A stretch of DNA of 64,000 nt from Rhodanobacter sp. C03. GTDB taxonomy: Bacteria; Pseudomonadota; Gammaproteobacteria; Xanthomonadales; Rhodanobacteraceae. How positions within the stretch are numbered: position 1 is the first letter of the stretch; the number at the start of each line of letters is the position of its first letter. This document shows positions 21,366-36,289 of this stretch, in pieces. Location of the stretch: assembly GCF_002001175.1 (NCBI RefSeq), contig NZ_MUNT01000001.1:248001-312000 (forward strand), given 5' to 3'. Made by a program: the position numbers and the translations under genes. The notes beneath the pieces were generated by a model, which did no database searches, was not told the origin of the DNA, and saw only the letters and a program-made list of their open reading frames with translations.

Positions 21366-22397
21366 ATGAACTCCCCTACGCCCGCGCCGCGCGAGTCTTC
21401 TCCGCTGATCCGTTACGTGAGCTGCGTGCTGGCCGCGGTGGCGCTGTTGTCGATCATCGAGCTGCATCTGCTGTCGGCGTTGCTGGCCGGTCTGCTGGTC
21501 TACGAACTGGTGCAGGCGGTAACGCCGTTGCTGGGCCAGCGCATCTCCGGCGATCGGGCGAGGGTGCTGGTGGTCGCGGCCCTGGGAGCGATCGTGGTGG
21601 GTTTGCTGATCCTGCTGATCCTCGGTGCGATCAGCTTCTTCCGCAGCGAGATCGGCAACCCCGAGCTGCTCTGGCAGCAGCAACTGATGCCGCTGGTGGA
21701 GAAAGCCCGCCAGCAATTGCCGGCCGTGGTGGTCGATCACCTGCCGGACAGCGTCGATGACCTGCGGGTGGGCGCGGTCGAGCTGGCCCGCAAGCATGCG
21801 GCGACCCTGCAGCTGGCCGGCAAGGGCGCGGTGCGAGTGTTCGTGCACATCATCATCGGGCTGGTGCTGGGCGCGATCATCGCGCTCAGCCGTGCCCGTC
21901 CTGCGCATCAGGTCGGGCCGCTCGCCGCGGCGATGGGCCTGCGCTGCCAGCGGCTGGCCGAGGCGTTCCACAACATCGTGTTCGCGCAGATCAAGATCTC
22001 GCTGATCAATACCCTGTTCACCGCGATCTTCCTGCTCGGCGCACTGCCGCTGCTGGGCATCCACGTGCCGCTGGCTAAGACACTGGTGGTGCTGACCTTC
22101 ATCGTCGGACTGCTGCCGGTGGTCGGCAACCTGCTGTCCAACACCGCCGTCACCGTCGCCGCGCTGTCGGTGTCGCTCGGGGTTGGTGTCGCCGCGCTCG
22201 GCTTCCTGGTGCTGATCCACAAGCTGGAATACTTCCTCAACGCGCGCATCGTCGGTACCCAGATCCACGCCCGCGCGTGGGAATTGCTGATTGCGATGCT
22301 GGTGATGGAGGCCGCCTTCGGCCTGCCGGGCGTGATCGCCGCGCCGATCTATTACGCCTATCTGAAGAGCGAGCTGGAAGCGGAAAAGCTGATCTGA
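21366..22397 (+). CDS. AI-2E family transporter (PerM/TqsA type)
   Basis: A 343-residue membrane protein with a pair of N-terminal helices, a soluble segment at about 95-160, and a C-terminal group of helices containing NTLFTAIFLLGALPLLGI and the family motif FIVGLLPVVGNLLSNT, then PGVIAAPIYYAYLKSEL at the end. The family includes TqsA, an exporter of AI-2, and others linked to ion or metabolite efflux; the substrate here is unknown. It is divergent from the e(P4) phosphatase (about 127 bp between starts). Confidence 0.87.
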   Translation: MNSPTPAPRESSPLIRYVSCVLAAVALLSIIELHLLSALLAGLLVYELVQAVTPLLGQRISGDRARVLVVAALGAIVVGLLILLILGAISFFRSEIGNPELLWQQQLMPLVEKARQQLPAVVVDHLPDSVDDLRVGAVELARKHAATLQLAGKGAVRVFVHIIIGLVLGAIIALSRARPAHQVGPLAAAMGLRCQRLAEAFHNIVFAQIKISLINTLFTAIFLLGALPLLGIHVPLAKTLVVLTFIVGLLPVVGNLLSNTAVTVAALSVSLGVGVAALGFLVLIHKLEYFLNARIVGTQIHARAWELLIAMLVMEAAFGLPGVIAAPIYYAYLKSELEAEKLI

Positions 22398-22426
22398 TGC
22401 CCGCGTAGTCCCCGATACTTCCCAAA

Positions 22427-22505
22427 CGCAAGATCCAACGTGATGAAAAATCATGCGCATTGTGTGAAGAAATTGTTGCAAGTTCTTTCGACGACGTGCT
22501 AAAAC
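22427..22505 (+). promoter_or_regulatory. Promoter region of the first TonB-dependent receptor gene
   Basis: TTGCAA (22476-22481), 18-bp spacer and TAAAAC (22500-22505). The second receptor gene has TTGCGC, 18 bp, TAGAAC at the matching place. A further shared block CGCAAGAT lies upstream (22427-22434; 27523-27530). Conservation between the copies supports functional importance; the regulator is unknown. Confidence 0.55.
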
Positions 22506-22641
22506 TTGCCGGTCATGAATCGACCAACCGGCACGGAGAACGCTGGTTTGCGCATCCCGGATGCCGGTTCGTGCCGATAGCCCGCCCACTGACGGACGGG
22601 GTTGCCCGCTAGCTAAAAACTCTGAGGGGAGTTCTGAACAC
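22506..22641 (+). promoter_or_regulatory. Conserved structured 5' leader of the first TonB-dependent receptor mRNA
   Basis: About 135 nt between the predicted start of transcription and the ATG, strongly similar to the leader of the second receptor. Three foldable parts are seen in both: ACCGGCA (22527-22533) with TGCCGGT (22562-22568); a CCCG...CGGG hairpin near 22580-22603; and AACTC-TGAGGG-GAGTT just before the start, which holds the GAGGGGAG ribosome binding site in its loop. A 21-codon open frame (MNRPTG...) starts at 22515. The role may be translational control. Confidence 0.5.
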
Positions 22642-25473
22642 ATGATCAAGTCGAAAATTACCGTTGCCATCGTGGCTGCATTGGCGCTTGGCTATACCTC
22701 CGCCTATGCGCAGTCAGCCCAGACGGATACGTCCCAGCAAAGCACTGAGCAGGCGCCTGACAGCACCAAGGCCAAGAAGCTCGAAGCGGTCACCGTGACT
22801 GGCTCGCTGATCCCGTCGTCGCAGATCGAGACGGCCACGCCGGTCATCACGATTACCGCGCAGGACATGAAGGTCCGTGGTTTTACTACCGTGGCCGAAG
22901 CGCTGCAGCAGTCATCATTCGCCACCGGCAGTGTGCAGGGCGCGCAGACCTCGGCGTCGTTCACCCAGGGCGCGCAGACGCTGAGCATGTTCGGCCTGCC
23001 GGTCGGTTTCGTGAAGTACTTGATCGACGGTCGCCCGATGGGCAACTTCCCCGGCCTGTACAACGGCAGCGATGCGTTCAACAACCTCAGCGGCATCCCG
23101 ATGGACATGGTCGATCACATCGACATCCTGCCGGGTGGCCAGTCGTCGCTATATGGTTCTGACGCCATTGCTGGCGTGATCAACATCGTGCTGAAAAAGC
23201 ACATCGACGCCCCGGCGATCGACGTGCGTTACGGCTGGCACAAGGACGGCGGCGGTGCCGACCGTCGCATCAGCTTGGCCGACAGCTTCAGCGCCGGCAA
23301 ATTCAACGCGCTGGTGGGTGTGCAGTTCGAGAAGACACAGCCGATCTGGGGCTTCGATCGCGACCTGACCAAGCAGTATTTCACCCAGGGTACCAGTGTC
23401 CCGGTGGCTTCACGTGATTACCTGGTCAACAGCGGCACCGGTGCCGGCTACCTGTTCGAGGATCCGAACAACTGCTCCAATGTCACCGGCCAGTTCGGGG
23501 GCACCGAAGCCAAGCAGCACCGCAAGAACTCCGGTGACTACTGCGGATCGTTCTATAGCCCGGGCTACAAGACGGTCACTAACGACGACAAGACGGTCAA
23601 CCTCTACACCCACACCACGTTCGACGTCAGCGACAACCTGCAGCTGTACGGCGACCTGCTGTACAACTACGAGGAGACGAAGACTTCGGTGGGCTCCAGC
23701 TACACCTGGTGGGGCACCTCGGTCGACTACGGCTACATCTACGACGAGAACCTTGACGACTTCGTGAACCTGCAGCGCGCGTTCTCGCCGGAGGATGTCG
23801 GCGGCTACAGGAACATCATGAACAAGCAGACCGAGAACTCGTACATGCTGACTCTCGGTGGCAAGGGTACGTTCGGCCAGTCGAACTGGGACTACGACGT
23901 CGGCTTCACGCACTCGGATGACAAGTTGTTGGCGCATGATTTCCAGCGCTTCGATGGCGCCATCGATGCCTACTTCCGTTCGCATGTGCTCGGGCCGCAG
24001 CATGGCCTGGATCCCTATTACGGCGCGTACGCAGCCTTCTCCCCGAACTACAATGCGTTCTACCAGCCGATGTCGCCGTCGGATTTCCGCAGCTTTACCG
24101 GTTACACGGATACCCGTTCCAAGACTTGGGACAACATGCTGCGCGGTCAGGTGACCAACGCGTCGCTGTTCTCGATGCCGGCAGGTGACGCAGGTATCGC
24201 GGTGGTGGTCGAAGGCGGCAACCAGGGCTGGTCCTACGTACCCGATCCGCGTCTGCTCGACGGCGAGATCTGGGGCACCACCGACGTGCAGGGTGCGGGT
24301 CATCGCTCACGCTTTGCGACCACGGCCGAGCTGAAGGTTCCGCTGCTGAGCCAGCTGACCCTGGATGTGTCCGGCCGTTACGACGACTACAAGGTCGCGG
24401 GCCAGAACGTCAACCACGGCACCTACAACCTCGGCCTCGAGTATCGTCCGTTCGAATCCCTGTTGCTGCGCGGCCGCTATGGCAGCGCGTTCAAGGTGCC
24501 GACCCTGGCCGATGAATTCCAGGGCCTGAGTGGCTACTACAGCCAGGTGACCGACTATGCCAACTGCGGCCGCCTGGGTTACAGCGGTCCGAACGTCGCC
24601 GATTGTCCGACCAAGTACAGCGACGTGCAGTTCTTCGGCCAGCAGTCGGGCAGCACGAGCCTGAAGCCGATCACCGCGAAAGTATGGAGCTACGGTTTCG
24701 TCTGGGCGCCCATGTCGAAAATGTCGGTCAGCGTGGACTATCTGCACTGGGACATCAAAAACGAAGTGAACCAGCAGAGTGCGGACGGCCTGTCGGCCAC
24801 CGAGTACCTGTGCGATGTCGGCACGATCGCGATGAGCTCGCAGACCTGTCAGGCGGCGTTTGACCAGATCACTCGCGGTACCGCGCTCACCCCGGGCCTG
24901 CTTGGTCCGATCCTGGAAATCTATACGCCGAAGGTCAACGTATCCAACGAGCAGGTCAATGCCATCACGGCCAACTTCGGCTACTTGCAGGACATTGGCG
25001 CGATGGGCCGACTGTCCTTCAATGCGTCCTACAGCGACATGCTGAAGCACTCCTACCAGGACTACCCGAGCGATCCGGCGATCGACCTGCTGCGTCATCC
25101 GAACTGGAGTACCGACTTCAAGAGCAAGGTCAACGCCTCGATCACCTGGAGCCTGGACGAGTGGAGCGCCACGCTGTACGCCAACCGTTACGGTCGTACG
25201 CCCAACTACCTGGCCACGGTGTACGACGACTACACCCATACGGGCACTGGCAAGCTTCCGGCGTGGACCCTGTATAACGTCAGCGTGACCTACAACCCGC
25301 TCAAGAACCTCGGCTTGTCGTTCCTGGTCAACAACGTGTTCAACAAAATGCCGCCGCTGGATCGCAGCTATCCGGGTACCGCGGGCACGCCGTACAACAC
25401 TTCCAACTACAACGTGTACGGTCGCGCCATGTACATCGAGGCAAACTACAAGTTCGGTGCCGGCGCGAAGTAA
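22642..25473 (+). CDS. TonB-dependent outer membrane receptor (copy 1)
   Basis: From ATG 22642 (preceded by GAGGGGAG) the product has 943 residues. Signal peptide ends at AYA (residue 23); a Gln/Ser/Thr-rich linker leads to a TonB-box-like EAVTVTG at 48-54. The plug domain follows with ITAQDMKVRGFTTVAEAL, DGRPMGNFPG and GGQSSLYGSDAIAGVINIVL at 165-184, then a beta-barrel of about 720 residues ending YIEANYKFGAGAK. It imports an unknown ligand across the outer membrane using TonB-ExbBD energy. It faces a TPR-sulfotransferase gene across a shared terminator region, and a paralogous pair follows. Confidence 0.93.
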   Translation: MIKSKITVAIVAALALGYTSAYAQSAQTDTSQQSTEQAPDSTKAKKLEAVTVTGSLIPSSQIETATPVITITAQDMKVRGFTTVAEALQQSSFATGSVQGAQTSASFTQGAQTLSMFGLPVGFVKYLIDGRPMGNFPGLYNGSDAFNNLSGIPMDMVDHIDILPGGQSSLYGSDAIAGVINIVLKKHIDAPAIDVRYGWHKDGGGADRRISLADSFSAGKFNALVGVQFEKTQPIWGFDRDLTKQYFTQGTSVPVASRDYLVNSGTGAGYLFEDPNNCSNVTGQFGGTEAKQHRKNSGDYCGSFYSPGYKTVTNDDKTVNLYTHTTFDVSDNLQLYGDLLYNYEETKTSVGSSYTWWGTSVDYGYIYDENLDDFVNLQRAFSPEDVGGYRNIMNKQTENSYMLTLGGKGTFGQSNWDYDVGFTHSDDKLLAHDFQRFDGAIDAYFRSHVLGPQHGLDPYYGAYAAFSPNYNAFYQPMSPSDFRSFTGYTDTRSKTWDNMLRGQVTNASLFSMPAGDAGIAVVVEGGNQGWSYVPDPRLLDGEIWGTTDVQGAGHRSRFATTAELKVPLLSQLTLDVSGRYDDYKVAGQNVNHGTYNLGLEYRPFESLLLRGRYGSAFKVPTLADEFQGLSGYYSQVTDYANCGRLGYSGPNVADCPTKYSDVQFFGQQSGSTSLKPITAKVWSYGFVWAPMSKMSVSVDYLHWDIKNEVNQQSADGLSATEYLCDVGTIAMSSQTCQAAFDQITRGTALTPGLLGPILEIYTPKVNVSNEQVNAITANFGYLQDIGAMGRLSFNASYSDMLKHSYQDYPSDPAIDLLRHPNWSTDFKSKVNASITWSLDEWSATLYANRYGRTPNYLATVYDDYTHTGTGKLPAWTLYNVSVTYNPLKNLGLSFLVNNVFNKMPPLDRSYPGTAGTPYNTSNYNVYGRAMYIEANYKFGAGAK

Positions 25474-25500
25474 GCGTCTTCACTGCACTCGTGTCATCGA

Positions 25501-25530
25501 CGGCCCCGCTTCGGCGGGGCCGTTTTTTTT
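25501..25530 (+). terminator. Intrinsic terminator of receptor copy 1
   Basis: Nine-base stem CGGCCCCGC/GCGGGGCCG with TTCG loop, followed by eight T. The same stem ends receptor copy 2. Confidence 0.95.
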
Positions 25531-25592
25531 ACAGCGCCTCGAATGGTTTTTCCCGAGGGCCGCGACAGTGCGCAGAATATCGGCAGGCCGAA

Positions 25593-27170
25593 TTACTGAG
25601 CCAGCTTGATGCCGGCTTCGTCCAGTAGCGCCTGCAGCGCACGCAGTTGCGGCTCGTATTTCTTCCAGCGCTTGAGCGCGCTGCGGTAGACCGGTGCGCG
25701 CACCTGTACGGCACTCGCCGTATTGACCGGTGCCGGATTGTTTTCGAAACTCAGGCAGGCATCGTTCCAGCTCAGCCCGCAGAATTCCAGCAATCGCCGC
25801 GAGCTCGCTTCCTGCGATTCCACCAGGGTCTCGTAATCCATTTCCAGGATGCGCCCCGGGAATACGCACTGCCAGTGCGCCATCAGGCGATCGAATAAAA
25901 CGTAATACCTGCCGGTATCAAGCAGGTCGAACGAATAGCCGTAATAAGGCGAAAGTGCTCCAAACAACTGTCGGAAATTGCTGAGGCAGGTATCCATAGG
26001 ATCACGCCGCAGACAGATGATCTTCGCGTTGGGCAGTGCGTGGGCAATGAAGCCCGCATACAGGAAATTGTGCGGCAGCTTGTCGATGAAATGCGGTTTG
26101 TTCCCGGTAGCGGGGCGCGTGCTGGAAAGATAGGTCTCTCCCACTTCCTTCCAGTCGACATGACTTGCGCGGGCAATCGTCTCGGGGTCGAGCAGCAACG
26201 CGGACGGGCTGCGCGTTGCATACTTGAGCGCCATGCCGAAATTTTGCAGCTCGCCGGCGGAATACACGTCTGGATGGCTGGTGATGATGCGCTCAAGCAG
26301 CGTGGTGCCAGTGCGCGGCATGCCGATCACGAAGATGGGTTCTTCGGTGGGGCAGCCAGATGTCGTCACCTCTGGATCGGGAAAGGCCGCTGTCAGCGCG
26401 TCAAACAGGACTTCATCTGACTGGATGGAATAACCACGCGTATGCCGCCCGGCCGATTTGCCGCGCACGTAATGACCGAATGCTGCGGGATAGTCCGCAA
26501 TGTCCTCGTATTCCTTCGCCAGCGCCATGTTGAGGTAGGTCTGCGCATCGGAGTTGTCGGCCAGTTGCGACAAGACCGACTGCAGCCGCTCGATATGATT
26601 GCTGGTCGGCGTTTGTCGTCGCAGTTGCGCGAGAGTCAAGTGCGCCTTCCAGTAGCCGGGAGCCAGCCCGATGCATGCCTCGAGCTCATGTTCGGCGGCG
26701 TCGATATCTCCCGCTGCGACCAAGGCGGTTGCCAGGTTGAACCGGTAGGGAGGATGACTGGGCATGAGTGCTACAGCGCCGCGAAAGGCCATCGCCGCCT
26801 GCTCATGCGCGTTTGCTTGCGTGTAGATCACGCCGAGGGTGTCCAGTGTGATCGGGTCATCAGGCGACAACGCCATGGCGCGATCGGCGGTGAGCCGTGC
26901 ATCGCGCATCAAGCGGACGAGAGCCAGTGCCTTCGCGTACTGCGTCGCATAGTCGGCGCGGCGGGGTTCAAGCTGCATGGCCTGGTGCAGGCAATCCAGC
27001 GCCTTTGGCATCTGCTGCAACTCCAGGTGGGCAATGCCAGCGATGTAGTTCACGCCTGGATGGTGTGGTGCGAGCGGCAGCAGTTGCTCCGCCAGTTGCA
27101 GCGCCTGCGTCCATGCGCGCCGATTGAACGCCGCGGTGAGCTGGGCAAAAAGTTCGGCGGGATCGGTCAT
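25593..27170 (-). CDS. TPR-repeat sulfotransferase (copy 1)
   Basis: A 525-residue cytoplasmic protein. Residues 1-230 are tetratricopeptide-type helical repeats (about 34-residue spacing, with conserved LAPHHPGVNYIAGIAHLE, LSPDDPITLDTLGVIY, MPSHPPYRFNLATAL). Residues 278-480 form a sulfotransferase domain related to tyrosylprotein sulfotransferases: PAPS 5'-phosphosulfate loop GMPRTGTTLLERI at 283-295, presumed catalytic Glu307 in SAGELQN, and 3'-phosphate motif CLRRDPMDTCLSNFRQLF at 386-403. It should transfer sulfate from PAPS to a peptide or small molecule; the acceptor is unknown. No signal peptide. It converges on receptor copy 1. Confidence 0.9.
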   Translation of the reverse strand: MTDPAELFAQLTAAFNRRAWTQALQLAEQLLPLAPHHPGVNYIAGIAHLELQQMPKALDCLHQAMQLEPRRADYATQYAKALALVRLMRDARLTADRAMALSPDDPITLDTLGVIYTQANAHEQAAMAFRGAVALMPSHPPYRFNLATALVAAGDIDAAEHELEACIGLAPGYWKAHLTLAQLRRQTPTSNHIERLQSVLSQLADNSDAQTYLNMALAKEYEDIADYPAAFGHYVRGKSAGRHTRGYSIQSDEVLFDALTAAFPDPEVTTSGCPTEEPIFVIGMPRTGTTLLERIITSHPDVYSAGELQNFGMALKYATRSPSALLLDPETIARASHVDWKEVGETYLSSTRPATGNKPHFIDKLPHNFLYAGFIAHALPNAKIICLRRDPMDTCLSNFRQLFGALSPYYGYSFDLLDTGRYYVLFDRLMAHWQCVFPGRILEMDYETLVESQEASSRRLLEFCGLSWNDACLSFENNPAPVNTASAVQVRAPVYRSALKRWKKYEPQLRALQALLDEAGIKLAQ

Positions 27171-27511
27171 GGAATTCCAGCTGGGATGTGGAAGTTGGAA
27201 ATTACGAAAATGTGGCAGTTCATCACGATGAACTTGCGGTCACGAACAGGGTGAGGAAGTTGCACATCGCCCACGGACCGTGGCCGATTGTAACGTGGCG
27301 GCATCCCTCGCTTCGGCTCACGCCATCTAACCCGGCCACGCGGTGGCCAGCCTGCTCTTCGCCATGCTTGACTCGGCGGGCCCCGCGCCTGGTAACGGTT
27401 GGTCGGGAGGCGACTCGCCATGTGCTTCGCCATGGCGTTTCGTTTCGCTGGCCGCGGCCGAAACTGGGCTCTTGAGAAAGCTGTCGAGTCGGCTGCTGTC
27501 GAATCGCTGTT
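27171..27511. other. Intergenic stretch upstream of the duplicated receptor, no gene seen
   Basis: About 340 bp between the start of sulfotransferase copy 1 (minus strand) and the regulatory region of receptor copy 2. Short open frames occur on both strands but without ribosome binding sites or recognisable products. The promoter of sulfotransferase copy 1 must lie at the left end; no clear boxes were found. Confidence 0.5.
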
Positions 27512-27605
27512 TCTTGCGTAATCGCAAGATTACGACGCACTATCATACGTTTTGATTTGATGTGTGAATATTTTGTTGCGCACACTTTCGTGGGCATGTT
27601 AGAAC
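27512..27605 (+). promoter_or_regulatory. Promoter and upstream inverted repeat of the second TonB-dependent receptor gene
   Basis: TTGCGC (27576-27581), 18-bp spacer, TAGAAC (27600-27605), the same geometry as for copy 1. Upstream, TCTTGCG-TAAT-CGCAAGA (27512-27529) is a perfect 7-bp inverted repeat with 4-bp centre; copy 1 retains its right half (CGCAAGAT). This could be an operator. Confidence 0.55.
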
Positions 27606-27752
27606 GCTAACGCGCCATGAATCGACCGACCGGCAGGGAGTGTGCTGGTTTGTGTGTTCCGTATTTCGAATGCCGGTTCGCGCCGATTACCCGTCCACTG
27701 AATGACGGGTTCAAACACATTGCTGAAAAACTCTGAGGGGAGTTCCGAACAC
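27606..27752 (+). promoter_or_regulatory. Conserved structured 5' leader of the second TonB-dependent receptor mRNA
   Basis: Matches the leader of copy 1: ACCGGCA and TGCCGGT arms are identical, the CCCGTC...GACGGG hairpin is stronger than in copy 1, and the AACTC-TGAGGG-GAGTT hairpin around the ribosome binding site is unchanged. A 39-codon frame (MNRPTG...) runs from 27617 to the stop at 27734-27736, overlapping the last hairpin. Because the frames differ in length between copies, conserved RNA structure is the likelier constraint. Confidence 0.5.
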
Positions 27753-30644
27753 ATGATCAAGTCGAAAATTGCCGTTGCCATCGTGGCAGCCCTGGCGCTT
27801 GGCTATACCACCGCGTACGCGCAGGATGCTCAGCCGAGTACATCGTCACAGCAGGATCAGAGCTCCGATCAGGCGCCCAGCACCAAGAACGCCAAGAAGC
27901 TGCAGGCGGTCACCGTGACCGGTTCGCTGATTCCGCAGACGCAGATCGAGACGGCCACGCCGATCATCACGATCACTGCGCAGGACATGAAGGCCCGGGG
28001 CTTCGCCACCATTGCCGATGCACTGCAGCAGTCGTCGTTTGCGACAGGTAGCGTGGAGGGTTCGCAGTTCACCAATTCGTTCACGCCAGGCGCACAGACC
28101 CTGAGTCTGTTCGGCTTGCCGGTCGGCTTTGTGAAGTACCTGATCGACGGTCGGCCGATGGGCAATTTCCCCGGCCTGTACAACGGTAGCGACACGTTCA
28201 ACAACTTGAGCGGCATCCCGATTGACATGGTCGACCATATCGACATCCTGCCGGGTGGCCAGTCCTCGCTGTACGGTTCGGACGCGATCGCCGGCGTGAT
28301 CAACATCGTGCTGAAGAAGCACATCGATGCACCTGTCATTGATGTGCGCTACGGCTGGCATTCGGATGGTGGCGGTGCCGATCGCCGGATCAGCCTGGCC
28401 GACAGTTTCAGTGCCGGCAAATTCAATTCACTGGTAGGTTTTCAGTTCGAATCGACACAGCCGATCTGGACCCGTGACCGCAGCCTGACCAAGCAGTTCT
28501 ATACCGAGGGAACCACGCCGCCGACGGCCTCGCGCGATTACCTGTTCACCAGTGCCGGTGGTGCGCTTTCGGGTTACCAGTTCCTGGATCCGGACAACTG
28601 CGCCAATGTCTCCAGCCAGTGGAACGGCACGCTGACCAAGCAGCATCGCAATGGCAGTGGCGACTACTGCGGCTCACAGTACACCCCGGGTTACGGAACG
28701 GTCACCACGGACAACAAGACGGCCAACATTTATACGCACAATACGTTCGACGTGAACGACAATCTGCAGTTGTACGGCGATCTGCTCTACAACTACCAGG
28801 AGCAGAAGTACACGAACGGTGCCGGTACGACATTTTGGGGTAGCAACGTGGTGGCAGCTGCCTCCGGTGGTGGCTATTACTGGGATCCGGGCCTGCAAAG
28901 CCTCATGCTCGCCCAGCATGTGTTTTCGCCGGAGGAAGTCGGCGGCTACTCGAATATCATGAACAAGAGTACCGAAAACTCCTACATGCTGACCTTCGGC
29001 GGAAAGGGTACTTTCGGCCAGTCAAACTGGGATTACGATCTCGGCTTCACGCATTCCGACGATAAATTGCTTGACCACGATTTCCAGCGCTTCACTATTC
29101 CGATGGAAACGTATTTCGCGAACCATGTGCTGGGGCCGCAGCTGGGTACGTATTACGGCTATCCCGTCTTCAAGCCGAATTACGCCGGACTTTACCAGCC
29201 GGTATCGCAGTCGGACTTCAAGGGCTTCACGGGCTATACCGACAGTCGTTCCAAGACCTGGGACAACATGTTGCGCCTGCAGCTTACCGATGCCTCGTTG
29301 TTCACCTTGCCCGGTGGCGACGCCGGCGTTGCGGCCGTGCTCGAGGGTGGCAACCAGGGTTGGAACGACTCGCCTGACCCGCGTCTGCTGGAGACAGTGG
29401 ACTGGAACGGCAATCAGGTTCCGTATGTCTGGGGTACCAGCGCCACGCCGGGTGCAGGCCATCGTTCGCGTTACGCGGCCACCGCCGAGATGAAGTTTCC
29501 GTTGCTGAGCCAGTTGACCCTGGATGCTTCAACCCGCTACGACAGCTACAACGTCTCGGGTCAAAATGTCAGTCATCCGACCTACAACCTGGGCATCGAG
29601 TATCGTCCGTTCGAATCCTTGTTGATACGCGGTAAGTACGGTACCGCGTTCAAGGTGCCCACCTTGTCTGACGAGTTCCAGCTGCCGAGCGGTTTCTACG
29701 ACAGCGTCACGGATTTTCTCAATTGCGGTCGACTGGGTTTCAGCGGCAGCACGCTCGCCAACTGCCCCAGCCTGTACAACAGCGTGCAGTATCACGGGGT
29801 GACCTATGGCAACCCGGCGCTGAAGCCGATCACGGCGAAGGTGTGGAGTTACGGCTTTGTCTGGGCACCGATCGAGCGGATGTCGGTCAGCGTGGATTAC
29901 CTGCACTGGGATATCAACAACGAAGTTGCCTCGGTCAGTGCAACCCAGCTCTCCAATACGGAGTATCTGTGCGATATCAAGACGATTGATCCCAATTCGG
30001 CGACTTGTTCGCAGGCATTCAATTTCATTACCCGCGGTCCAGGCACGACATCATCGACTGGCATCCCGCTGCTGGGTGGTATCACCCAGATCGTGACGCC
30101 CAAGCTCAATGTCGCCAACGAGCAGGTCAATGCGATCACGGCAAACTTCAGCTATGTCCAGGACATCGGCTACCTGGGCCAGTTGTCGCTTGCCCTGTCC
30201 TATTCCGATGAGCTGAAGCACACGTATCAGGATTACCCAACCGATCCATCGGTCAACTATCTGACCAATCCCAACTACAGTACCGACTTCAAGACGAAGG
30301 CGAATGGTTCGCTGACCTGGAGCAAGGACAAGTGGACGGCCACCTGGTATGTCAACCGTTATGGCAGCACGCCGAACTATCTGGCCACTGTGGCCAATAA
30401 CTACACCAGCAAGGGAACCGGCAAGCTGGCGCCCTGGGTTCTGTCCAACCTCAGCGTGACCTTCAATCCGATCAAGAGCCTCGGCTTGTCGTTCCTGGTC
30501 GATAACGTGTTCAACAAGATGCCGCCGGTGGATCACAGCTATCCCGGTACCACCGGTACGCCGTACAACGTATTCAACTACAACATCTACGGTCGTGCCA
30601 TGTACGTCGAGGCGAACTACAAGTTCGGCACGAGCGGCGAATAA
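27753..30644 (+). CDS. TonB-dependent outer membrane receptor (copy 2)
   Basis: From ATG 27753 the product has 963 residues. It is a close paralogue of copy 1: same signal peptide (MIKSKIAVAIVAALALGYTT), similar Gln/Ser linker, QAVTVTG TonB-box region, identical plug segment GGQSSLYGSDAIAGVINIVL, and similar barrel ending YVEANYKFGTSGE. The differences concentrate in stretches that should be extracellular loops (for example near residues 270-300, 360-375 and 590-610), suggesting a related but distinct ligand. It has its own leader and terminator and faces sulfotransferase copy 2. Confidence 0.93.
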   Translation: MIKSKIAVAIVAALALGYTTAYAQDAQPSTSSQQDQSSDQAPSTKNAKKLQAVTVTGSLIPQTQIETATPIITITAQDMKARGFATIADALQQSSFATGSVEGSQFTNSFTPGAQTLSLFGLPVGFVKYLIDGRPMGNFPGLYNGSDTFNNLSGIPIDMVDHIDILPGGQSSLYGSDAIAGVINIVLKKHIDAPVIDVRYGWHSDGGGADRRISLADSFSAGKFNSLVGFQFESTQPIWTRDRSLTKQFYTEGTTPPTASRDYLFTSAGGALSGYQFLDPDNCANVSSQWNGTLTKQHRNGSGDYCGSQYTPGYGTVTTDNKTANIYTHNTFDVNDNLQLYGDLLYNYQEQKYTNGAGTTFWGSNVVAAASGGGYYWDPGLQSLMLAQHVFSPEEVGGYSNIMNKSTENSYMLTFGGKGTFGQSNWDYDLGFTHSDDKLLDHDFQRFTIPMETYFANHVLGPQLGTYYGYPVFKPNYAGLYQPVSQSDFKGFTGYTDSRSKTWDNMLRLQLTDASLFTLPGGDAGVAAVLEGGNQGWNDSPDPRLLETVDWNGNQVPYVWGTSATPGAGHRSRYAATAEMKFPLLSQLTLDASTRYDSYNVSGQNVSHPTYNLGIEYRPFESLLIRGKYGTAFKVPTLSDEFQLPSGFYDSVTDFLNCGRLGFSGSTLANCPSLYNSVQYHGVTYGNPALKPITAKVWSYGFVWAPIERMSVSVDYLHWDINNEVASVSATQLSNTEYLCDIKTIDPNSATCSQAFNFITRGPGTTSSTGIPLLGGITQIVTPKLNVANEQVNAITANFSYVQDIGYLGQLSLALSYSDELKHTYQDYPTDPSVNYLTNPNYSTDFKTKANGSLTWSKDKWTATWYVNRYGSTPNYLATVANNYTSKGTGKLAPWVLSNLSVTFNPIKSLGLSFLVDNVFNKMPPVDHSYPGTTGTPYNVFNYNIYGRAMYVEANYKFGTSGE

Positions 30645-30671
30645 GCGCCACAGCTGAATCGCCTGATCCAA

Positions 30672-30702
30672 CGGCCCCGCTTCGGCGGGGCCGTTTCATT
30701 TT
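30672..30702 (+). terminator. Intrinsic terminator of receptor copy 2
   Basis: Stem CGGCCCCGC/GCGGGGCCG with TTCG loop, identical to the terminator of copy 1, followed by TTTCATTTT. Confidence 0.9.
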
Positions 30703-30781
30703 GTGGCTCATCAGTATGACTGGGCGGCAGCTGATGCTCGCGTCTCCGGTTCAGCGCGAGAGACGCAACCGGCGGCCATCA

Positions 30782-32362
30782 TCAAGAGATCGAGATGCCG
30801 GCTTCGTTCAACAGATCCCGCAGCTCGTTCAATTGCGGACCGTATTTCTTCCAGCGCTTGAGTGCGCTGCGGTAGATCGGTGCACGTACCTGTACGGCGC
30901 TGGCGGTGGCGACTGGCGTCGGGTTTGCCTCGAAGTGCATGCAGGCATCGTTCCAGGGCAGGCCGCAAAATTCCAGCAACTGCCTTGAGCTGGCTTCCTG
31001 CGAGTCCACCAGGGTCTCGTAAGCCACTTCGAGAATGCGTCCCGGCAACACTCGCTGCCAGTGCGCCATCAGGCGATCGAACAGGACGTAATATCTGCCC
31101 GTGTCGAGCAGGTCGAACGAATAGTCGAAGTATGCTGATTTGGGAGCGAACAACTGACGGAAATTGCTGAGACAGGTATCCATCGGATCACGTCGCAGAC
31201 AAATGATCTTCGCGTTGGGGAGCGCCTGGGCAATGAAGCCTGCATACAGGAAATTGTGCGGCAGCTTGTCGATGAAGTGCGGCGTGTGGCTGGTGGCCGG
31301 ACGGGTGCTGGCAAGGTAGGTCTCGCCAAGCAGTTTCCAGTCGACCTTGCGCGCACCGACGACCGTACCCGAATCGATCAGCGGCGGCGTCTGGCTGCCG
31401 GACAGGAACTTCAGCGACATGCCGAAATTCAGCAGTTCTCCCGCGGAGTACACGTCGGGATGGCTGGAGATGATCCGCTCCACCAGCGTGGTACCGGTGC
31501 GCGGCATGCCGATGATGAAGATCGGCTCGCCGGATGGGTGGCCAATCGTCGGATCAGTCCGTGGTTCCGGGAAACTCTCCGCAATGGCCGCAAACAGTGC
31601 CTCGTCCCGCTGGATTGAATAGTCGCGGTCGGCACCGCCGGCCGACTTGCCGTGAACGAGATGGGTGAACGCCTTCGGGTAGTCGGCGAGATCCTCGCAT
31701 TCCTTGGCGAGTGCCATGTTGATGCAGACCTGCGCTGTGGTATCGGTGGCGGCAATTTGCGGCAGCAGCGATTCCAGCCGTTCCACATGATGGCTGGCCG
31801 GTGTCTGCCGGCGCAGTTGCGCGAGTGTCAGATGCGCCCGCCAATACTTGGGGTCGAGTGTCAGGCAGGCCTCGATCTCGACCTCGGCGTCGTCGAGGTC
31901 GCCGGCGGCGACCAGCGAGGTGGCCAGGTTGTATCGGTAGGATGCGTCAGTCGGGGCAAGCGATGCGGCCTGGCGGAATACCGCGATCGCCGATCCGTAT
32001 TCACCGATCTGGGTATAGACCACACCCAGCGTGTCCAGCGTGATCGGATCGCCTGGCGACAAGGCCATCGCCCGGTCTGCGACAACCCTGGCATCGCGGT
32101 TCCTGCGCGCGGCGCAGAGTGCCTTGGCGTACTGCACGGCGAAGTCAGCCCGGGTGGGCTCCAGTATCCCCGCCCGGCGCAGGTACTCCAGCGCCTGTGG
32201 CAATTGCTCTAATTGCATATATGCAATGCCGGCGATGTAATTCACACCCGGATGACGTGGCGCGAGTGGCAGCAGGCGATCAGCCAGCTGCTGTGCCTGC
32301 GGCCATGCGCGCTGATTGAACGCGGTAGTGAGCTGGGCAAAGAGTTCGGCCGGGTCAGTCAT
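30782..32362 (-). CDS. TPR-repeat sulfotransferase (copy 2)
   Basis: A 526-residue paralogue of copy 1 with the same architecture: N-terminal TPR-like repeats (residues 1-230) and a PAPS-dependent sulfotransferase domain with GMPRTGTTLVERI, SAGELLN (presumed catalytic Glu) and CLRRDPMDTCLSNFRQLF. The start is supported by AGGA seven bases upstream and alignment with the other two copies (MTDPAELFAQL). It converges on receptor copy 2. A 12-bp tandem duplication (TGAGAATTGAGA twice, 32380-32403) lies just upstream. Confidence 0.9.
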   Translation of the reverse strand: MTDPAELFAQLTTAFNQRAWPQAQQLADRLLPLAPRHPGVNYIAGIAYMQLEQLPQALEYLRRAGILEPTRADFAVQYAKALCAARRNRDARVVADRAMALSPGDPITLDTLGVVYTQIGEYGSAIAVFRQAASLAPTDASYRYNLATSLVAAGDLDDAEVEIEACLTLDPKYWRAHLTLAQLRRQTPASHHVERLESLLPQIAATDTTAQVCINMALAKECEDLADYPKAFTHLVHGKSAGGADRDYSIQRDEALFAAIAESFPEPRTDPTIGHPSGEPIFIIGMPRTGTTLVERIISSHPDVYSAGELLNFGMSLKFLSGSQTPPLIDSGTVVGARKVDWKLLGETYLASTRPATSHTPHFIDKLPHNFLYAGFIAQALPNAKIICLRRDPMDTCLSNFRQLFAPKSAYFDYSFDLLDTGRYYVLFDRLMAHWQRVLPGRILEVAYETLVDSQEASSRQLLEFCGLPWNDACMHFEANPTPVATASAVQVRAPIYRSALKRWKKYGPQLNELRDLLNEAGISIS

Positions 32363-32379
32363 GGAATCCTGATTCGCGC

Positions 32380-32403
32380 TGAGAATTGAGATGAGAATTG
32401 AGA
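32380..32403. repeat. Tandem duplication of a 12-bp unit upstream of sulfotransferase copy 2
   Basis: TGAGAATTGAGA occurs twice head to tail, 18 bp upstream of the start codon on the minus strand. It would lie in the leader or promoter and may vary in copy number. Confidence 0.8.
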
Positions 32404-32505
32404 ATAGTGTGATTGCATTTCACGGAAGGCATCGTTTGAACGCGCGAATGCCATGCTTGAGACATCGTTGCAGCGAGCATGCATGCGGATCAACAGGCCC
32501 TCGCG

Positions 32506-34083
32506 TTATGCGCTGAATTTTATGCCTGCATCACTCAATAACATACGCAACTCGGCCAATTCCGCTTCGTATTTCTTCCAGCGACGGATGGCGGATCGGT
32601 ACAGCGGTGTGCGTACTTGCGTCGCACTGAACGTGGCTACGGGTGCCGGATTGTTCTCGAACTGCAGGCAGGCGTCATGCCAGGGCAGCCCGCAAAATTC
32701 GAGTAATTGTCGTGTACTGGCTTCCTGTGTATCCACCAGTGTTTCGTATTCCAGTTCAAGGATGCGTCCGGGAAATACGCGCTGCCAGTGTGCCATCAAG
32801 TGGTCGAACAGGACGAAATACTTGCCGGTGTCGAGCAGATCGTACGAGTAATCGAAAGAAGTGGAGGTCTGTTCGAACAGTTGGCGGAAATTGCTGAGGC
32901 AAGTGTCCATCGGATCGCGACGCAGGCAGATGATCCTGGCGTTGGGCAACGCGCGTGCGATGAAACCCGCGTACAGGAAATTGTGCGGCAGCTTGTCGAT
33001 GAAACGCGGCTTGTATGCAGTGGCGGGTCGTGTGCTCGAAAGGTAGTCGGCGCCGAGCCGTTTCCAGTCGAACGTTCGCGCTCGTGTGATGATTTCAGGA
33101 TCGAACAGCACCGGCGTCTGGCTGCCCGAGACGCGCTGGAGTGCCGTCGCGAAGTTCTGCAGTTCGCCCGCAGCGTAGACATCCGGATGACTGGAAAGGA
33201 TGCGTTCCACCAGCGTGGTACCCGAACGCGGCATGCCCACCACGAAGATGGGTTCCTCGGTGGGATCACCCAGCGACTCGGGTTGCGGTTCCGGAAAGGC
33301 GCGCGTCAGTTTCTCGAACATGACTTGATCTCGCTGAATCGAATAGCGGCGACCTCCGCGTGCTGCTGACTTGCCGCGCACGAGGCACTCGAACGCCTTG
33401 GGGTAGCTGGCCAGATCCTCGTATTCCTTGGCCAGCGCCATGTTCAGATAGGTCATGGCGGCGACATCGCCTGGATACTGCAGCAATAACGACTGCAACC
33501 GTTCCACATGATTTCTGGCCGGTGTCTGCCGTCCTAGCTGTGCCAGCGACAGATGCGGATTCCAGTACTTCGGCGCCAGTTTGATGCACGCCTCGAATTC
33601 CAGCTCGGCAGCGTCAAGGTCACCGATGGCTACCAGGGCAGTGGCCAGATTGAAACGACATGAAGCCTGTGTCGGCGAGCGTGCTACGGCGGCGCGGAAT
33701 GCTGCGACGGCTCGCTCATGCGCCCGTGCCTGGGTATAGATCACGCCAAGGGTATCCAGCGTCATCGGGTCATCGGGCGACAAGGCCAGCGCAAGATCGG
33801 CAGCAAGTACCGCTTCGCCTGGCAGGCCGGCTGCAGAAAGTGCCTTTGCATACAGCGTCGCAAAGTCAGCTCGCGTGGGATCCAGCTCGGCAGCCCTGCG
33901 CAGATATGTCACGGCCTGAGCCAGCTGTTGCAACTCCAGGCTGACCACGCCGGCGATGCTGTAGACCCCGGCATGGTTCGGTGCGAACGGCAGCAGCTGT
34001 GTCGCCAGTGCCTGTGCTTCCGGCCAGTTGCCGCGGTTGAAGGTTGCCACGAGCTGCGCGTAGAGCTGGGCCGGATCAGCCAT
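32506..34083 (-). CDS. TPR-repeat sulfotransferase (copy 3)
   Basis: The 525-residue third paralogue (MADPAQLYAQLVATFN) has the TPR half and the sulfotransferase half with GMPRSGTTLVERI, AAGELQN and CLRRDPMDTCLSNFRQLF; all presumed cofactor and catalytic residues are kept. Unlike copies 1 and 2 it has no receptor gene facing it, so it is either a spare from duplication or acts with a different partner. About 140 bp separate it from copy 2, so it could drive copy 2 as well. It follows rep (minus strand) by 83 bp without apparent functional link. Confidence 0.88.
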   Translation of the reverse strand: MADPAQLYAQLVATFNRGNWPEAQALATQLLPFAPNHAGVYSIAGVVSLELQQLAQAVTYLRRAAELDPTRADFATLYAKALSAAGLPGEAVLAADLALALSPDDPMTLDTLGVIYTQARAHERAVAAFRAAVARSPTQASCRFNLATALVAIGDLDAAELEFEACIKLAPKYWNPHLSLAQLGRQTPARNHVERLQSLLLQYPGDVAAMTYLNMALAKEYEDLASYPKAFECLVRGKSAARGGRRYSIQRDQVMFEKLTRAFPEPQPESLGDPTEEPIFVVGMPRSGTTLVERILSSHPDVYAAGELQNFATALQRVSGSQTPVLFDPEIITRARTFDWKRLGADYLSSTRPATAYKPRFIDKLPHNFLYAGFIARALPNARIICLRRDPMDTCLSNFRQLFEQTSTSFDYSYDLLDTGKYFVLFDHLMAHWQRVFPGRILELEYETLVDTQEASTRQLLEFCGLPWHDACLQFENNPAPVATFSATQVRTPLYRSAIRRWKKYEAELAELRMLLSDAGIKFSA

Positions 34084-34166
34084 GGTCGTTCCCGGACGTA
34101 AAGAAAGTCAGCGCGGTGACTGCTGCGGGTATCGTAGGAAAGTCTGCGCGCTTCTGCATGCGATCA

Positions 34167-36164
34167 CTAGCCGGACGCCAGCATCGCGGCGATCTTCGCC
34201 ATATGCGATTCGGCGGTTTCGCGCACGGCTTCCTTGTCTGCCTCCGGATCCTTGCCCTGCCAGTGCAGGTCGGCCTGCGGCAGCTCGTGCAGGAAGCGAC
34301 TGGGCTGGTTGTTGTGGACATCGCCGTAGCGTTTGGTCTTGGCCGACCACGACAGCGTGAGCAGCTCTTTAGCGCGGGTGATGCCGACATACATCAGGCG
34401 GCGTTCCTCGTCGATACGACCCTCGTCGATCGCGCCTTCATGCGGCAGCGTGCCGTCCTCGCAGCCGACGATGAAGACGAAGCGGAACTCCAGGCCCTTG
34501 GCGGAGTGCAGGGTCATCATGCGCACCGCGTTGCCGGGTTCGTCGCGGTCGGCGTGGCTGAGCAGGGCGAGTTGCGAGGCGAGATCGCCGGCGCTGTTGC
34601 CGCCGGACGTATTCGAATTTCTCTGCATCGCGCGGAACCAGTCGGCGAGTTCCTTCAGGTTGCCCAGCTTGCGTTCGCGCACGCTGGCGTCGGGCGTGCC
34701 GGCGGCGATCTGCGCGGCGTAGCCGGTGCGCTTGAGGATCAGCTCGACCAGATCGGCGGCGCTCTCGTGCAACGAGGCGCTGCGCAGTTCGTCGAGCAGG
34801 CTTGCGAACGAGGCCAGCGCGGCGGCCGGGCGCGGGGTGAGCTGGCGCAGCACGCTGTCGCTGCGGGTGGCATCGAGCAGCGAGCTGTGCCGGCTCTGCG
34901 CAAGCTGGCCGAGCTTCTCCAATGTGGTCGAACCGATCTCGCGCTTGGGCACGTTGACCACGCGCAGGAACGCGGCGTCGTCGCTGGGGTTGGTCAGCAG
35001 GCGCAGATAGCACAGCAGGTCCTTCACCTCGGCGCGGTCGAGGAAGCTCAAGGCGCCGGTGAGGTGGTACGGAATCCGTGCCAGCCGCAGCGCTTTCTCC
35101 AGCACGCGTGCCTGGAAGTTGCCGCGATACAGGATCGCGATATCGTGCCAGCGCGCCTTGTGCTTTTCCGCCAGGGTGGTGGCGATCGCGGCGACGCGCT
35201 CGGCCTCGTGCTCGGCTTCCTTGCATTCGAGTACGCGGATCGGCGCGCCTTCCGGATGCTCGCTCCACAGCTTCTTTTCGTGCAGATGCGGGTTGTTCGC
35301 GATCAACTGGTTCGCCGCGCGCAGGATGCGTTTGCCGCAGCGGTAGTTCTGCTCCAGCTTGATCACGCGCAGGCTCGGCCAGTCGCGGCCGAGCTGGTCG
35401 ATGTTCTCCGGATTCGCGCCGCGCCAGGCGTAGATGCTCTGGTCATCGTCGCCGACACAGGTGATGCCGCCGCGCTCGCCGGTGAGTGCTTTCAGCAGGC
35501 GGTATTGCGCGTCATTGGTGTCCTGGTATTCGTCCACCAGCAGGTAGCGGAACCGCTCGCGCCAGGCATCGCGGCATTCGCTGTCGGCTTCGAGGATACG
35601 CAGCGGCAGCCGGATCAGGTCGTCGAAGTCGACCGCATTGAAGGCGGCGAGGCGCTGCTGGTACATGTCGTAGATCGTCGCCGCTTCCAGCTCGCGCGGG
35701 CTGCGTGCGGCGGCCAGTGCTTCCTCCGGCGAGAGGCCGCCGTTCTTGGCGCGGCTGAGCAGGTTGCGGATGCCGAACAGCACGTCCGGCTTCACGCCTT
35801 TCGGCGCCAGCTCCTTGACGATGCCGTTGCTGTCATCGGCATCCAGCACCGAGAAGCCGCGGCGCAGGCCGGCGCGCGCATGTTCGATTTGCAGGAATTT
35901 CAGTCCCAGCGCATGGAAGGTGCACACGGTGAGCGCCGCGGCATCCTCCGTGCTGACCAACTGGGCCACGCGCTCGCGCATCTCGCGCGCAGCCTTGTTG
36001 GTGAACGTGATCGCGGCGATCTTCGACGGCGCCAGTTTCCGGCGCGCAATCAGGTACGCGATCTTCTGGGTGATAACGCTGGTCTTGCCGGAGCCGGCGC
36101 CGGCCAGCACCAGCAACGGGCTGTCGCAATGTTCGACGGCGGCCAATTGTTGCGGATTGAGCAT
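34167..36164 (-). CDS. rep: ATP-dependent DNA helicase Rep
   Basis: From ATG 36164 the product has 665 residues (E. coli Rep has 673) and starts MLNPQQLAAVEHC like the family. Superfamily 1A motifs: Walker A AGAGSGKT at 21-28, VDEYQDTN, GDDDQSIYAWRGA, LEQNYR, and TMHSAKGLEF. Rep is a 3'-5' helicase that helps replication forks past protein roadblocks. Similarity in the middle of the protein (KLEQNYRCGKRILRAANQLIANNPHLHEK) is to Rep rather than UvrD. The frame is open 16 codons upstream but without family similarity. Confidence 0.95.
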   Translation of the reverse strand: MLNPQQLAAVEHCDSPLLVLAGAGSGKTSVITQKIAYLIARRKLAPSKIAAITFTNKAAREMRERVAQLVSTEDAAALTVCTFHALGLKFLQIEHARAGLRRGFSVLDADDSNGIVKELAPKGVKPDVLFGIRNLLSRAKNGGLSPEEALAAARSPRELEAATIYDMYQQRLAAFNAVDFDDLIRLPLRILEADSECRDAWRERFRYLLVDEYQDTNDAQYRLLKALTGERGGITCVGDDDQSIYAWRGANPENIDQLGRDWPSLRVIKLEQNYRCGKRILRAANQLIANNPHLHEKKLWSEHPEGAPIRVLECKEAEHEAERVAAIATTLAEKHKARWHDIAILYRGNFQARVLEKALRLARIPYHLTGALSFLDRAEVKDLLCYLRLLTNPSDDAAFLRVVNVPKREIGSTTLEKLGQLAQSRHSSLLDATRSDSVLRQLTPRPAAALASFASLLDELRSASLHESAADLVELILKRTGYAAQIAAGTPDASVRERKLGNLKELADWFRAMQRNSNTSGGNSAGDLASQLALLSHADRDEPGNAVRMMTLHSAKGLEFRFVFIVGCEDGTLPHEGAIDEGRIDEERRLMYVGITRAKELLTLSWSAKTKRYGDVHNNQPSRFLHELPQADLHWQGKDPEADKEAVRETAESHMAKIAAMLASG

Positions 36165-36289
36165 GGATCGAGGCGATACGTGAGGCGGCGCACGATGGTA
36201 ACAGAGCCCCACTGGCTGGCCGCCCGGTCTGCGCCATAATCGGCCGCTGGAGGTCGCTGTCGGGGTGACGGCGCCGGGCGGAGGGATGC

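What the first reader, a model, noticed from the sequence alone, without database searches (positions are those of the whole stretch)
22427..34083. Duplicated module of TonB-dependent receptor and TPR-sulfotransferase, plus a third sulfotransferase
Two large receptors (943 and 963 residues) each face a convergent cytoplasmic TPR-sulfotransferase (525 and 526 residues), and a third sulfotransferase follows. The sulfotransferases keep PAPS loops and a presumed catalytic Glu as in tyrosylprotein sulfotransferases, while TPR repeats usually bind peptides. Seen: order, orientation, motifs, duplication. Inferred: the enzyme sulfates a peptide, or a small molecule, that the matching receptor imports or senses. 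Divergence in probable outer loops of the receptors fits ligand change after duplication. No sulfated peptide or siderophore gene is in the window.
Basis: partly seen in the sequence, partly recalled or inferred. Interest (0 to 1): 0.8.

Follow-up and report, generated by a model that had tools for sequence, protein, structure and literature searches.

The report
Outer-membrane receptors paired with sulfotransferases
Two outer-membrane receptors sit beside three enzymes that look built to attach sulfate to proteins, and related receptors in other bacteria sit beside the same or similar protein-modifying enzymes, which suggests that such receptors, or what they bind, are chemically decorated.

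Summary
Confirmed: two TonB-dependent receptors (72% identical), each tail-to-tail with a 525/526-aa TPR-sulfotransferase, plus a third of the same kind. The modelled enzyme is a TPR superhelix (1-245) joined to a domain closest to protein-tyrosine sulfotransferases (Z 21). The site is a cargo hotspot: in 25 same-genus genomes it holds receptor plus sulfotransferase in 5, sulfotransferase alone in 5, something else in 8, nothing in 7. So pairing is real but neither fixed nor one-to-one; the 'duplicated matched module' is only partly right. The wider pattern is stronger. TPR-sulfotransferase clusters lie near such receptors about ten times more often than expected at random. A second TPR enzyme, an Asp/Asn beta-hydroxylase, joins them: 22 of 27 genus loci with it hold receptor and sulfotransferase too (many are orthologues at a few sites), eight as compact three-gene runs. 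Elsewhere, relatives sit beside 2OG-oxygenases or SAM-methyltransferases. Best reading: TPR-guided cytoplasmic enzymes modify a polypeptide before export, most likely the receptor itself. A sulfated ligand is the main rival; no tyrosine signature in the receptors favours either. No substrate is shown. Nothing on it was found in the open-licence library searched.

The parts
22561..25473 (+). TonB-dependent receptor 1 (970 aa; protein probably starts at the Met at 22642)
   Evidence: PF07715 + PF00593; alignment A1
22618..22633 (+). Conserved 16-base hairpin AACTCTGAGGGGAGTT that holds the probable Shine-Dalgarno of receptor 1
   Evidence: two copies in the genome
25593..27170 (-). TPR-sulfotransferase S1 (525 aa), convergent with receptor 1
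   Evidence: PF13469 + TPR
27171..27701 (+). 531-base gap with the upstream region and leader of receptor 2; no small ORF shared with other loci
27702..30644 (+). TonB-dependent receptor 2 (980 aa; protein probably starts at the Met at 27753)
   Evidence: PF07715 + PF00593; AF2 model pLDDT 74, BtuB/Cir-like fold
27729..27744 (+). Second copy of the Shine-Dalgarno hairpin
30782..32362 (-). TPR-sulfotransferase S2 (526 aa), convergent with receptor 2
   Evidence: PF13469 + TPR; AF2 model pLDDT 88, residues 275-526 TPST-like, 1-245 TPR
32506..34083 (-). TPR-sulfotransferase S3 (525 aa), co-directional with S2
   Evidence: PF13469 + TPR
21366..22397 (+). Left edge of the hotspot: AI-2E-family permease-like gene, matched in all 25 genus genomes searched
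   Evidence: weak PF01594, under its cut-off
34167..36212 (-). Right edge of the hotspot: Rep/UvrD-like helicase gene (named by reading its sequence), matched in all 25 genus genomes searched

Best explanation
A receptor cassette with TPR-guided sulfotransferases. Step 1 (strong inference): each enzyme is cytoplasmic, binds PAPS, and uses its TPR superhelix to hold an unfolded polypeptide while the TPST-like domain transfers sulfate to a side chain, probably tyrosine. Step 2 (inferred, uncertain): the polypeptide is most likely the receptor encoded beside it, or a related one, caught in the cytoplasm before Sec export, so that the barrel reaches the outer membrane with sulfated residues, plausibly in its loops. 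Step 3 (speculative): sulfation changes what the receptor binds, or hides it from phages or bacteriocins that use it. Beside related receptors the same kind of place is taken, alone or together, by TPR-Asp/Asn-beta-hydroxylases, 2OG-oxygenases (one shown to be a TPR fusion) and SAM-methyltransferases, so sulfation would be one of several modifications.
For: Fold: S2 residues 275-526 match seven TPST entries with Z 20.6-21.3 (best: rmsd 2.5-2.7, 235-238 residues), above the two other sulfotransferases listed (17.9, 17.8); by sequence the catalytic part matches TPSTs at 3e-14 to 1e-9, every other entry listed at 0.003 or worse. TPR part: OGT-like superhelix. No signal-peptide-like stretch in S1-S3. 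APS kinase for PAPS in the genome. Linkage: 16 of 98 sulfotransferase clusters near such receptors, 1.7 expected. Triad: of 27 genus loci with the TPR-hydroxylase, 24 hold a receptor, 24 a sulfotransferase, 22 both; on narrower lists 19 of 28 hydroxylase genes lie near a receptor or sulfotransferase, 1.2 expected. In all 8 of those loci that hold one receptor and a single sulfotransferase the three genes are co-directional, gaps 301 bases or less, one apparent overlap. Of 79 loci chosen by receptor similarity alone, 14 carry a sulfotransferase (7), 2OG-oxygenase (5) or SAM-methyltransferase (3) within 5 kb.
Against: Open sulfotransferase genes remain at the same site without a receptor in G004, G013, G017, G020; five pairs that involve them give omega 0.14-0.48. 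No receptor-enzyme co-evolution beyond shared ancestry. Tyrosine content and acidic tyrosines of predicted outer loops do not differ between receptors with and without a neighbouring sulfotransferase; the loop tyrosine most frequent in linked receptors (receptor 2 position 845, 10 of 11 against 1 of 8) can be explained by relatedness. Up to six sulfotransferase hits accompany one receptor. 7 of 17 sulfotransferases in this genome have no receptor within 6.2 kb. 65 of 79 receptor loci have none of the enzymes sought within 5 kb. The chance expectations assume random positions and independent genomes, yet many loci are orthologues at a few sites. The second-loop Ser is Gly in 4 of 17 aligned sequences. 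Fold does not fix the acceptor.
Confidence: 0.36

Rival explanations
1. One reading: the sulfotransferase modifies a ligand (peptide, siderophore-like or other small molecule) made by the cell, which the receptor then imports or senses, as proposed for sulfated methanobactins.
For: The receptors' relatives look like peptide importers: receptors 30-35% identical lie beside S51 / asparaginase-type peptidases (L012, L104), and the same hotspot in other genomes holds receptors with gamma-glutamyltranspeptidase and glutamate symporter, or with an S9 peptidase. Some methanobactin operons hold both a sulfotransferase and a TonB-dependent transporter (PMC3621798, passages).
Against: No convincing precursor gene in the gaps; no exporter or assembly-line gene noticed beside the cassette when the window's genes were read by eye; eight triads are bare three-gene runs. 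MbnS is given as PF00685 and not as a TPR fusion in the passages seen.
Confidence: 0.25
2. The TPR-sulfotransferases modify other substrates (surface polysaccharide, lipid, or various exported proteins) and share neighbourhoods with receptors because both are surface-related cargo carried to the same hotspots.
For: Solo copies elsewhere in the genome (L001, L002), one pair in a place shared with G016 (L091); sulfotransferase-only occupancy of this site; the site also takes a Zorya defence system and other receptor cassettes.
Against: The triad with the TPR-hydroxylase recurs at more than one site and in other families of the order, above the random expectation; a hotspot at one site does not explain that.
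Confidence: 0.24
3. Nutrient handling: the receptor imports environmental peptides or conjugates and the enzyme sulfates an imported product, for trapping or detoxification, in the cytoplasm.
For: Peptide-handling cassettes at the same site.
Against: Inference only: a TPR domain and a TPST-like fold are unusual for small acceptors, PAPS is a costly donor for catabolism, and the paired hydroxylase belongs to a family known for protein substrates (recalled).
Confidence: 0.08

Closest known systems
Eukaryotic protein-tyrosine sulfotransferases TPST1/TPST2
   Same: Catalytic fold, PAPS loops and a Glu after the first loop; closest solved structures by sequence and fold
   Different: TPST is a Golgi membrane enzyme without TPR (recalled); here a soluble bacterial TPR fusion, 20-24% identical in the fold alignment; acceptor unknown
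O-GlcNAc transferase (OGT)
   Same: TPR superhelix fused to a transferase that modifies proteins; TPR part matches OGT
   Different: Different catalytic domain and chemistry
RaxX-RaxST-RaxAB of Xanthomonas
   Same: Bacterial tyrosine sulfation of a gene-encoded peptide (PMC6637879, passages)
   Different: RaxST was modelled on TPST2 and the word TPR does not occur in that paper's main text; it has a precursor gene and a type I exporter
Methanobactin operons (MbnS + MbnT)
   Same: Sulfotransferase and TonB-dependent transporter in one operon in some species (PMC3621798, passages)
   Different: MbnS is PF00685, presumed to act on a threonine of the small precursor MbnA; no precursor found here
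Human ASPH (Asp/Asn beta-hydroxylase)
   Same: TPR plus PF05118 oxygenase, as in the companion enzyme of related loci; recalled to act on protein domains
   Different: Absent from the window's own module
aah-aidA and hmw1C-hmw1A type pairs (recalled, no tool result)
   Same: A cytoplasmic modifying enzyme encoded beside the exported surface protein that it modifies
   Different: Those are sugar transferases on adhesins

Membership tests
TonB-dependent receptor | Plug domain plus 22-strand barrel | tested here: met
   PF07715 and PF00593 over cut-off; AF2 model with 22 barrel strands by my reading of its secondary structure, BtuB Z 37.5 and Cir Z 37.1
Sulfotransfer_3 (PF13469) PAPS-dependent sulfotransferase | Whole-domain match over cut-off, two PAPS loops | tested here: met
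   E 8e-51, 3e-50, 5.4e-53; G-M-P-R-x-G-T-T and R-R-x-P-x-D-T-C-L-x-N-F-R invariant in 17 sequences; the x before N-F-R is Ser in the window's three, Gly in 4 of 17
Protein-tyrosine sulfotransferase | TPST fold as closest solved sulfotransferase fold | tested here: met
   Z 20.6-21.3 v 17.9 for the best other sulfotransferase listed
Protein-tyrosine sulfotransferase | Transfers sulfate to tyrosine of proteins | not testable with these tools
   no assay
Protein-tyrosine sulfotransferase | Acidic-tyrosine acceptor sites in the proposed substrate | tested here: inconclusive
   0-4 acidic loop tyrosines per receptor, no clear difference between 11 linked and 9 unlinked receptors
RiPP-type sulfated peptide system (methanobactin, RaxX) | Small precursor gene beside the sulfotransferase | tested here: not met
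   no same-strand ORF shared by more than two loci in one frame; a precursor elsewhere in the genome is not excluded
RiPP-type sulfated peptide system (methanobactin, RaxX) | MbnB/MbnC or dedicated peptide exporter | not tested
   window genes only read by eye
Receptor + TPR-sulfotransferase + TPR-beta-hydroxylase triad of this genus | TPR-PF05118 gene close by | tested here: not met
   the genome's one hit is at C11:380990, outside the window
Paired module inherited as a unit | Receptor and neighbouring enzyme trees agree; always together | tested here: not met

The most novel reading that the evidence does not exclude
A bacterial outer-membrane receptor modification code: TonB-dependent receptors of several proteobacterial lineages are decorated in the cytoplasm, before export, by enzymes encoded beside them, several of them TPR-guided (tyrosine sulfation, Asp/Asn beta-hydroxylation, 2OG-dependent oxidation, methylation), which sets ligand choice or hides the receptor from phages and bacteriocins.
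Probability: 0.25. Interest if true: 0.9.

Novelty: new variant of a known kind. Interest (0 to 1): 0.68.

Why it matters
I know of very few bacterial cases of tyrosine sulfation (RaxX; recalled, and passages of PMC6637879). A family of TPR-fused, TPST-like enzymes that travel with outer-membrane receptors, often together with TPR-fused protein hydroxylases, would open a class of post-translational modification on receptors that decide what nutrients, antibiotics and phages get in. The claim is directly testable by mass spectrometry on outer-membrane fractions.

Tried and rejected
Matched-pair co-evolution: adjacent pairs gave r 0.81 (9 pairs) and 0.55 (7 pairs, the two outlying ones dropped), but swapping S1 and S2 in the window gave 0.73, so one-to-one matching was dropped.

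Tyrosine signature of linked receptors: four Tyr/Ser/Thr columns passed the filter; by eye all can be explained by relatedness, not tested formally. Loop tyrosine content is alike with and without a neighbouring enzyme.

Small precursor gene: gap ORFs of 18 loci were compared; one locus (L095) gave no gap to search and some gave one. Similar pairs lie mostly over the conserved DNA upstream of receptors, in differing frames, between two loci each; none was shared by more than two loci in one frame. In eight triads the recurrent small ORFs run antisense over the receptor's 3' end; one same-strand 15-residue similarity joins L184 and L185, which look like close relatives.

RNA elements: three Rfam matches (E 0.12-0.44), all below gathering scores, at or after the receptors' 3' ends.

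Loop divergence as proof of ligand change: real, but equally seen against an unlinked paralogue.

Literature: terms for TPR-sulfotransferase gave 0 papers; sulfotransferase with TonB-dependent gave 22, seen as a listing; receptor/hydroxylase/halogenase/sulfotransferase terms 38, 15 listed; stricter triad terms one gene-list paper (PMC10040529, passages); TPR and 2-oxoglutarate terms 4, none on this by title and abstract; tyrosine-sulfation terms 14 and 73 (15 of the 73 listed), listings. The library holds open-licence PMC papers only, so absence is weak.

Full report
What is there. The window holds receptor 1 (22561-25473 +), S1 (25593-27170 -), receptor 2 (27702-30644 +), S2 (30782-32362 -) and S3 (32506-34083 -). 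Pfam calls both receptors Plug + barrel and all three enzymes Sulfotransfer_3 with TPR repeats. Receptors are 72% identical, S1/S2 71%, S2/S3 66%. The window lies in an unnamed 3.86-Mb genome; the closest named records found are Rhodanobacter sp. 67-28 at 66-69% for the receptor.

The enzyme. AlphaFold2 with 11 sequences gives S2 at pLDDT 87.8, pTM 0.80. Residues 1-245 are a TPR superhelix (OGT, MamA, LGN among the matches) and 275-526 match seven TPST entries with Z 20.6-21.3 (the best at 2.5-2.7 A over 235-238 residues), against 17.9 and 17.8 for the two other sulfotransferases listed. By sequence the catalytic part finds tick TPST at 3e-14 and human TPSTs near 1e-9; the next entry is at 0.003. 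The first PAPS loop and the Glu after it are invariant in 17 aligned sequences; in the second loop a Ser that is usual in sulfotransferases (PMC6637879, passage) is present in S1-S3 but Gly in 4 of the 17. The N-termini show no hydrophobic export signal (best 15-residue mean 0.59-1.19, against 2.06 for receptor 2). An APS kinase gene is present for PAPS. The tyrosine acceptor is inferred from the fold, not shown.

The receptor. The model (pLDDT 74) is BtuB/Cir-like (Z 37.5 and 37.1). Plug, strands and predicted outer loops of the two receptors are 88, 79 and 60% identical; the same gradient separates receptor 2 from an unlinked paralogue. Relatives at 30-35% stand beside peptidases of family S51, once fused to an asparaginase-type domain (L012, L104), which suggests peptide-like ligands for the wider family; this is inference.

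The site. The flanking genes (an AI-2E-permease-like gene and a helicase gene) were found in all 25 same-genus genomes searched. Between them: receptor(s) plus TPR-sulfotransferase(s) in 5 (G000, G003, G007, G012, G018); a sulfotransferase alone in 5 (G004; G013, G017, G020, and G016 where it is interrupted by a stop); under 170 bases in 7 (G002, G010, G011, G014, G015, G023, G024; G017 also has a second, empty copy on another contig); other cargo in 8: receptor + gamma-glutamyltranspeptidase + DUF1611 + glutamate symporter (G009, G019, G021, G022), receptor + S9 peptidase (G005, G006), a Zorya system (G008), small genes (G001). The family names were tested on one or two examples, the rest by reading. 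It is a hotspot, and receptor and enzyme can part. In G007 one of the two receptors is of another type (27% to receptor 2).

Pairing. In trees of 20 receptors and 29 enzymes the copies are old: receptor 1 pairs with one from G018 (86%), S3 with enzymes of G003 and G007, S2 with enzymes of G018, G004 and Rhodanobacter 67-28. Adjacent pairs correlate, but a deliberate mismatch correlates better. Outside the genus, Coralloluteibacterium has the same convergent pair (L098, receptor 47% identical), Pseudoxanthomonas wuyuanensis has the enzyme about 4 kb away (L100), and five other receptors at 46-54% (L094, L096, L097, L099, L101) have none in the fetched stretch. Pairs that involve solo enzymes give omega 0.14-0.48 (seven of the eleven pairs computed); the TPR part changes at least as fast as the catalytic part in all eleven.

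The wider pattern. In 25 genomes 120 TPR-sulfotransferase hits form 98 clusters; 16 lie within 12 kb of one of 60 receptor-2-like receptors, 1.7 expected (coordinates typed; the receptor list is narrow, and expectation assumes random positions). One cluster in this genome also holds a TPR-fused Asp/Asn beta-hydroxylase (PF05118). That enzyme has 28 hits in the genus. On the narrow lists 19 of 28 lie near a receptor or sulfotransferase, 1.2 expected. With my own profiles run on all ORFs of 27 loci (two hits share one), 24 hold a receptor, 24 a TPR-sulfotransferase, 22 both. Of the five without both, one stretch (L199) ends before a receptor that one search lists, two are cut by contig ends (L189; L190, which has a receptor fragment), and two are distant homologues (L205, L206; 32-33%). 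These are not 27 independent events: by their flanking genes many are orthologues at two recurrent sites. All eight loci with one receptor and a single sulfotransferase are co-directional with gaps up to 301 bases. Of nine loci in other families of the order, three hold all three genes (L087, L207, L214), two receptor + hydroxylase, one hydroxylase + sulfotransferase, three neither. Of the 79 loci fetched by receptor similarity alone (best 80 kept of 576), 14 have a sulfotransferase (7), 2OG-Fe(II) oxygenase (5) or SAM-methyltransferase (3) within 5 kb; 65 have none. In the one Shewanella oxygenase scanned it is a TPR fusion, and in a Kangiellaceae MAG sulfotransferase, oxygenase and, further off, methyltransferase share the receptor's locus.

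Interpretation. Several unrelated chemistries, several on TPR scaffolds, take a similar place beside one receptor superfamily, with no convincing precursor gene between them. The simplest common substrate is the receptor. Against it stand sulfotransferases left without a receptor at the hotspot, the lack of a tyrosine signature, up to six enzyme hits per receptor, and the many receptors with no such neighbour. A ligand made elsewhere in the genome is not excluded, and the peptide-handling cassettes at the same site keep it alive. I put 0.36 on receptor modification, 0.25 on a ligand, 0.24 on other substrates with shared hotspots.

Novelty. The parts are known families. I found no paper on TPR-sulfotransferases or on their tie to receptors in the open-licence library. 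RaxST and methanobactin are the nearest described cases (PMC6637879 and PMC3621798, passages only).

Noticed in passing
window 22618-22633 and 27729-27744: A perfect 16-base hairpin motif (AACTCTGAGGGGAGTT) wraps the probable Shine-Dalgarno of both receptors, is shared by several relatives, and with its flank NNGAA has no third match in the genome within 3 mismatches; it recalls G-rich ribosome sites targeted by Xanthomonas sRNA sX13 (recalled).
   Followed up: partly
window 22398-34166 and the same site in 24 genomes: Chromosomal hotspot between a permease-like gene and a helicase gene with exchangeable cargo: receptors with peptidases, receptors with sulfotransferases, a Zorya type I system (L178), or nothing.
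   Followed up: yes
L122 12680, L130 12601, L164 15369, L207 13967, L213 4716, L087 4655, L170 11352, L086 17164: A SAM-methyltransferase family of about 315 aa sits next to or near receptors of this kind in SAR92, Shewanella, Massilia and others.
   Followed up: partly
L135 3913, L145 12697, L153 12700: In Shewanella a 2OG-Fe(II) oxygenase-like gene of about 600 aa (TPR fusion shown by Pfam for L145 only) follows the receptor; by reading, a TonB2-type energising operon comes next in L145 and L153.
   Followed up: partly
L009 7684-9522: Single protein fusing an Asp/Asn beta-hydroxylase domain to a Sulfotransfer_3 domain, in the window's own genome.
   Followed up: no
window 36290-37621: FAD-dependent protein of the Trp_halogenase family (PF04820 over cut-off; the NCBIfam models shown only below their cut-offs), the next gene after the helicase; its family also lies near the site in L074, L075 and L081.
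   Followed up: no
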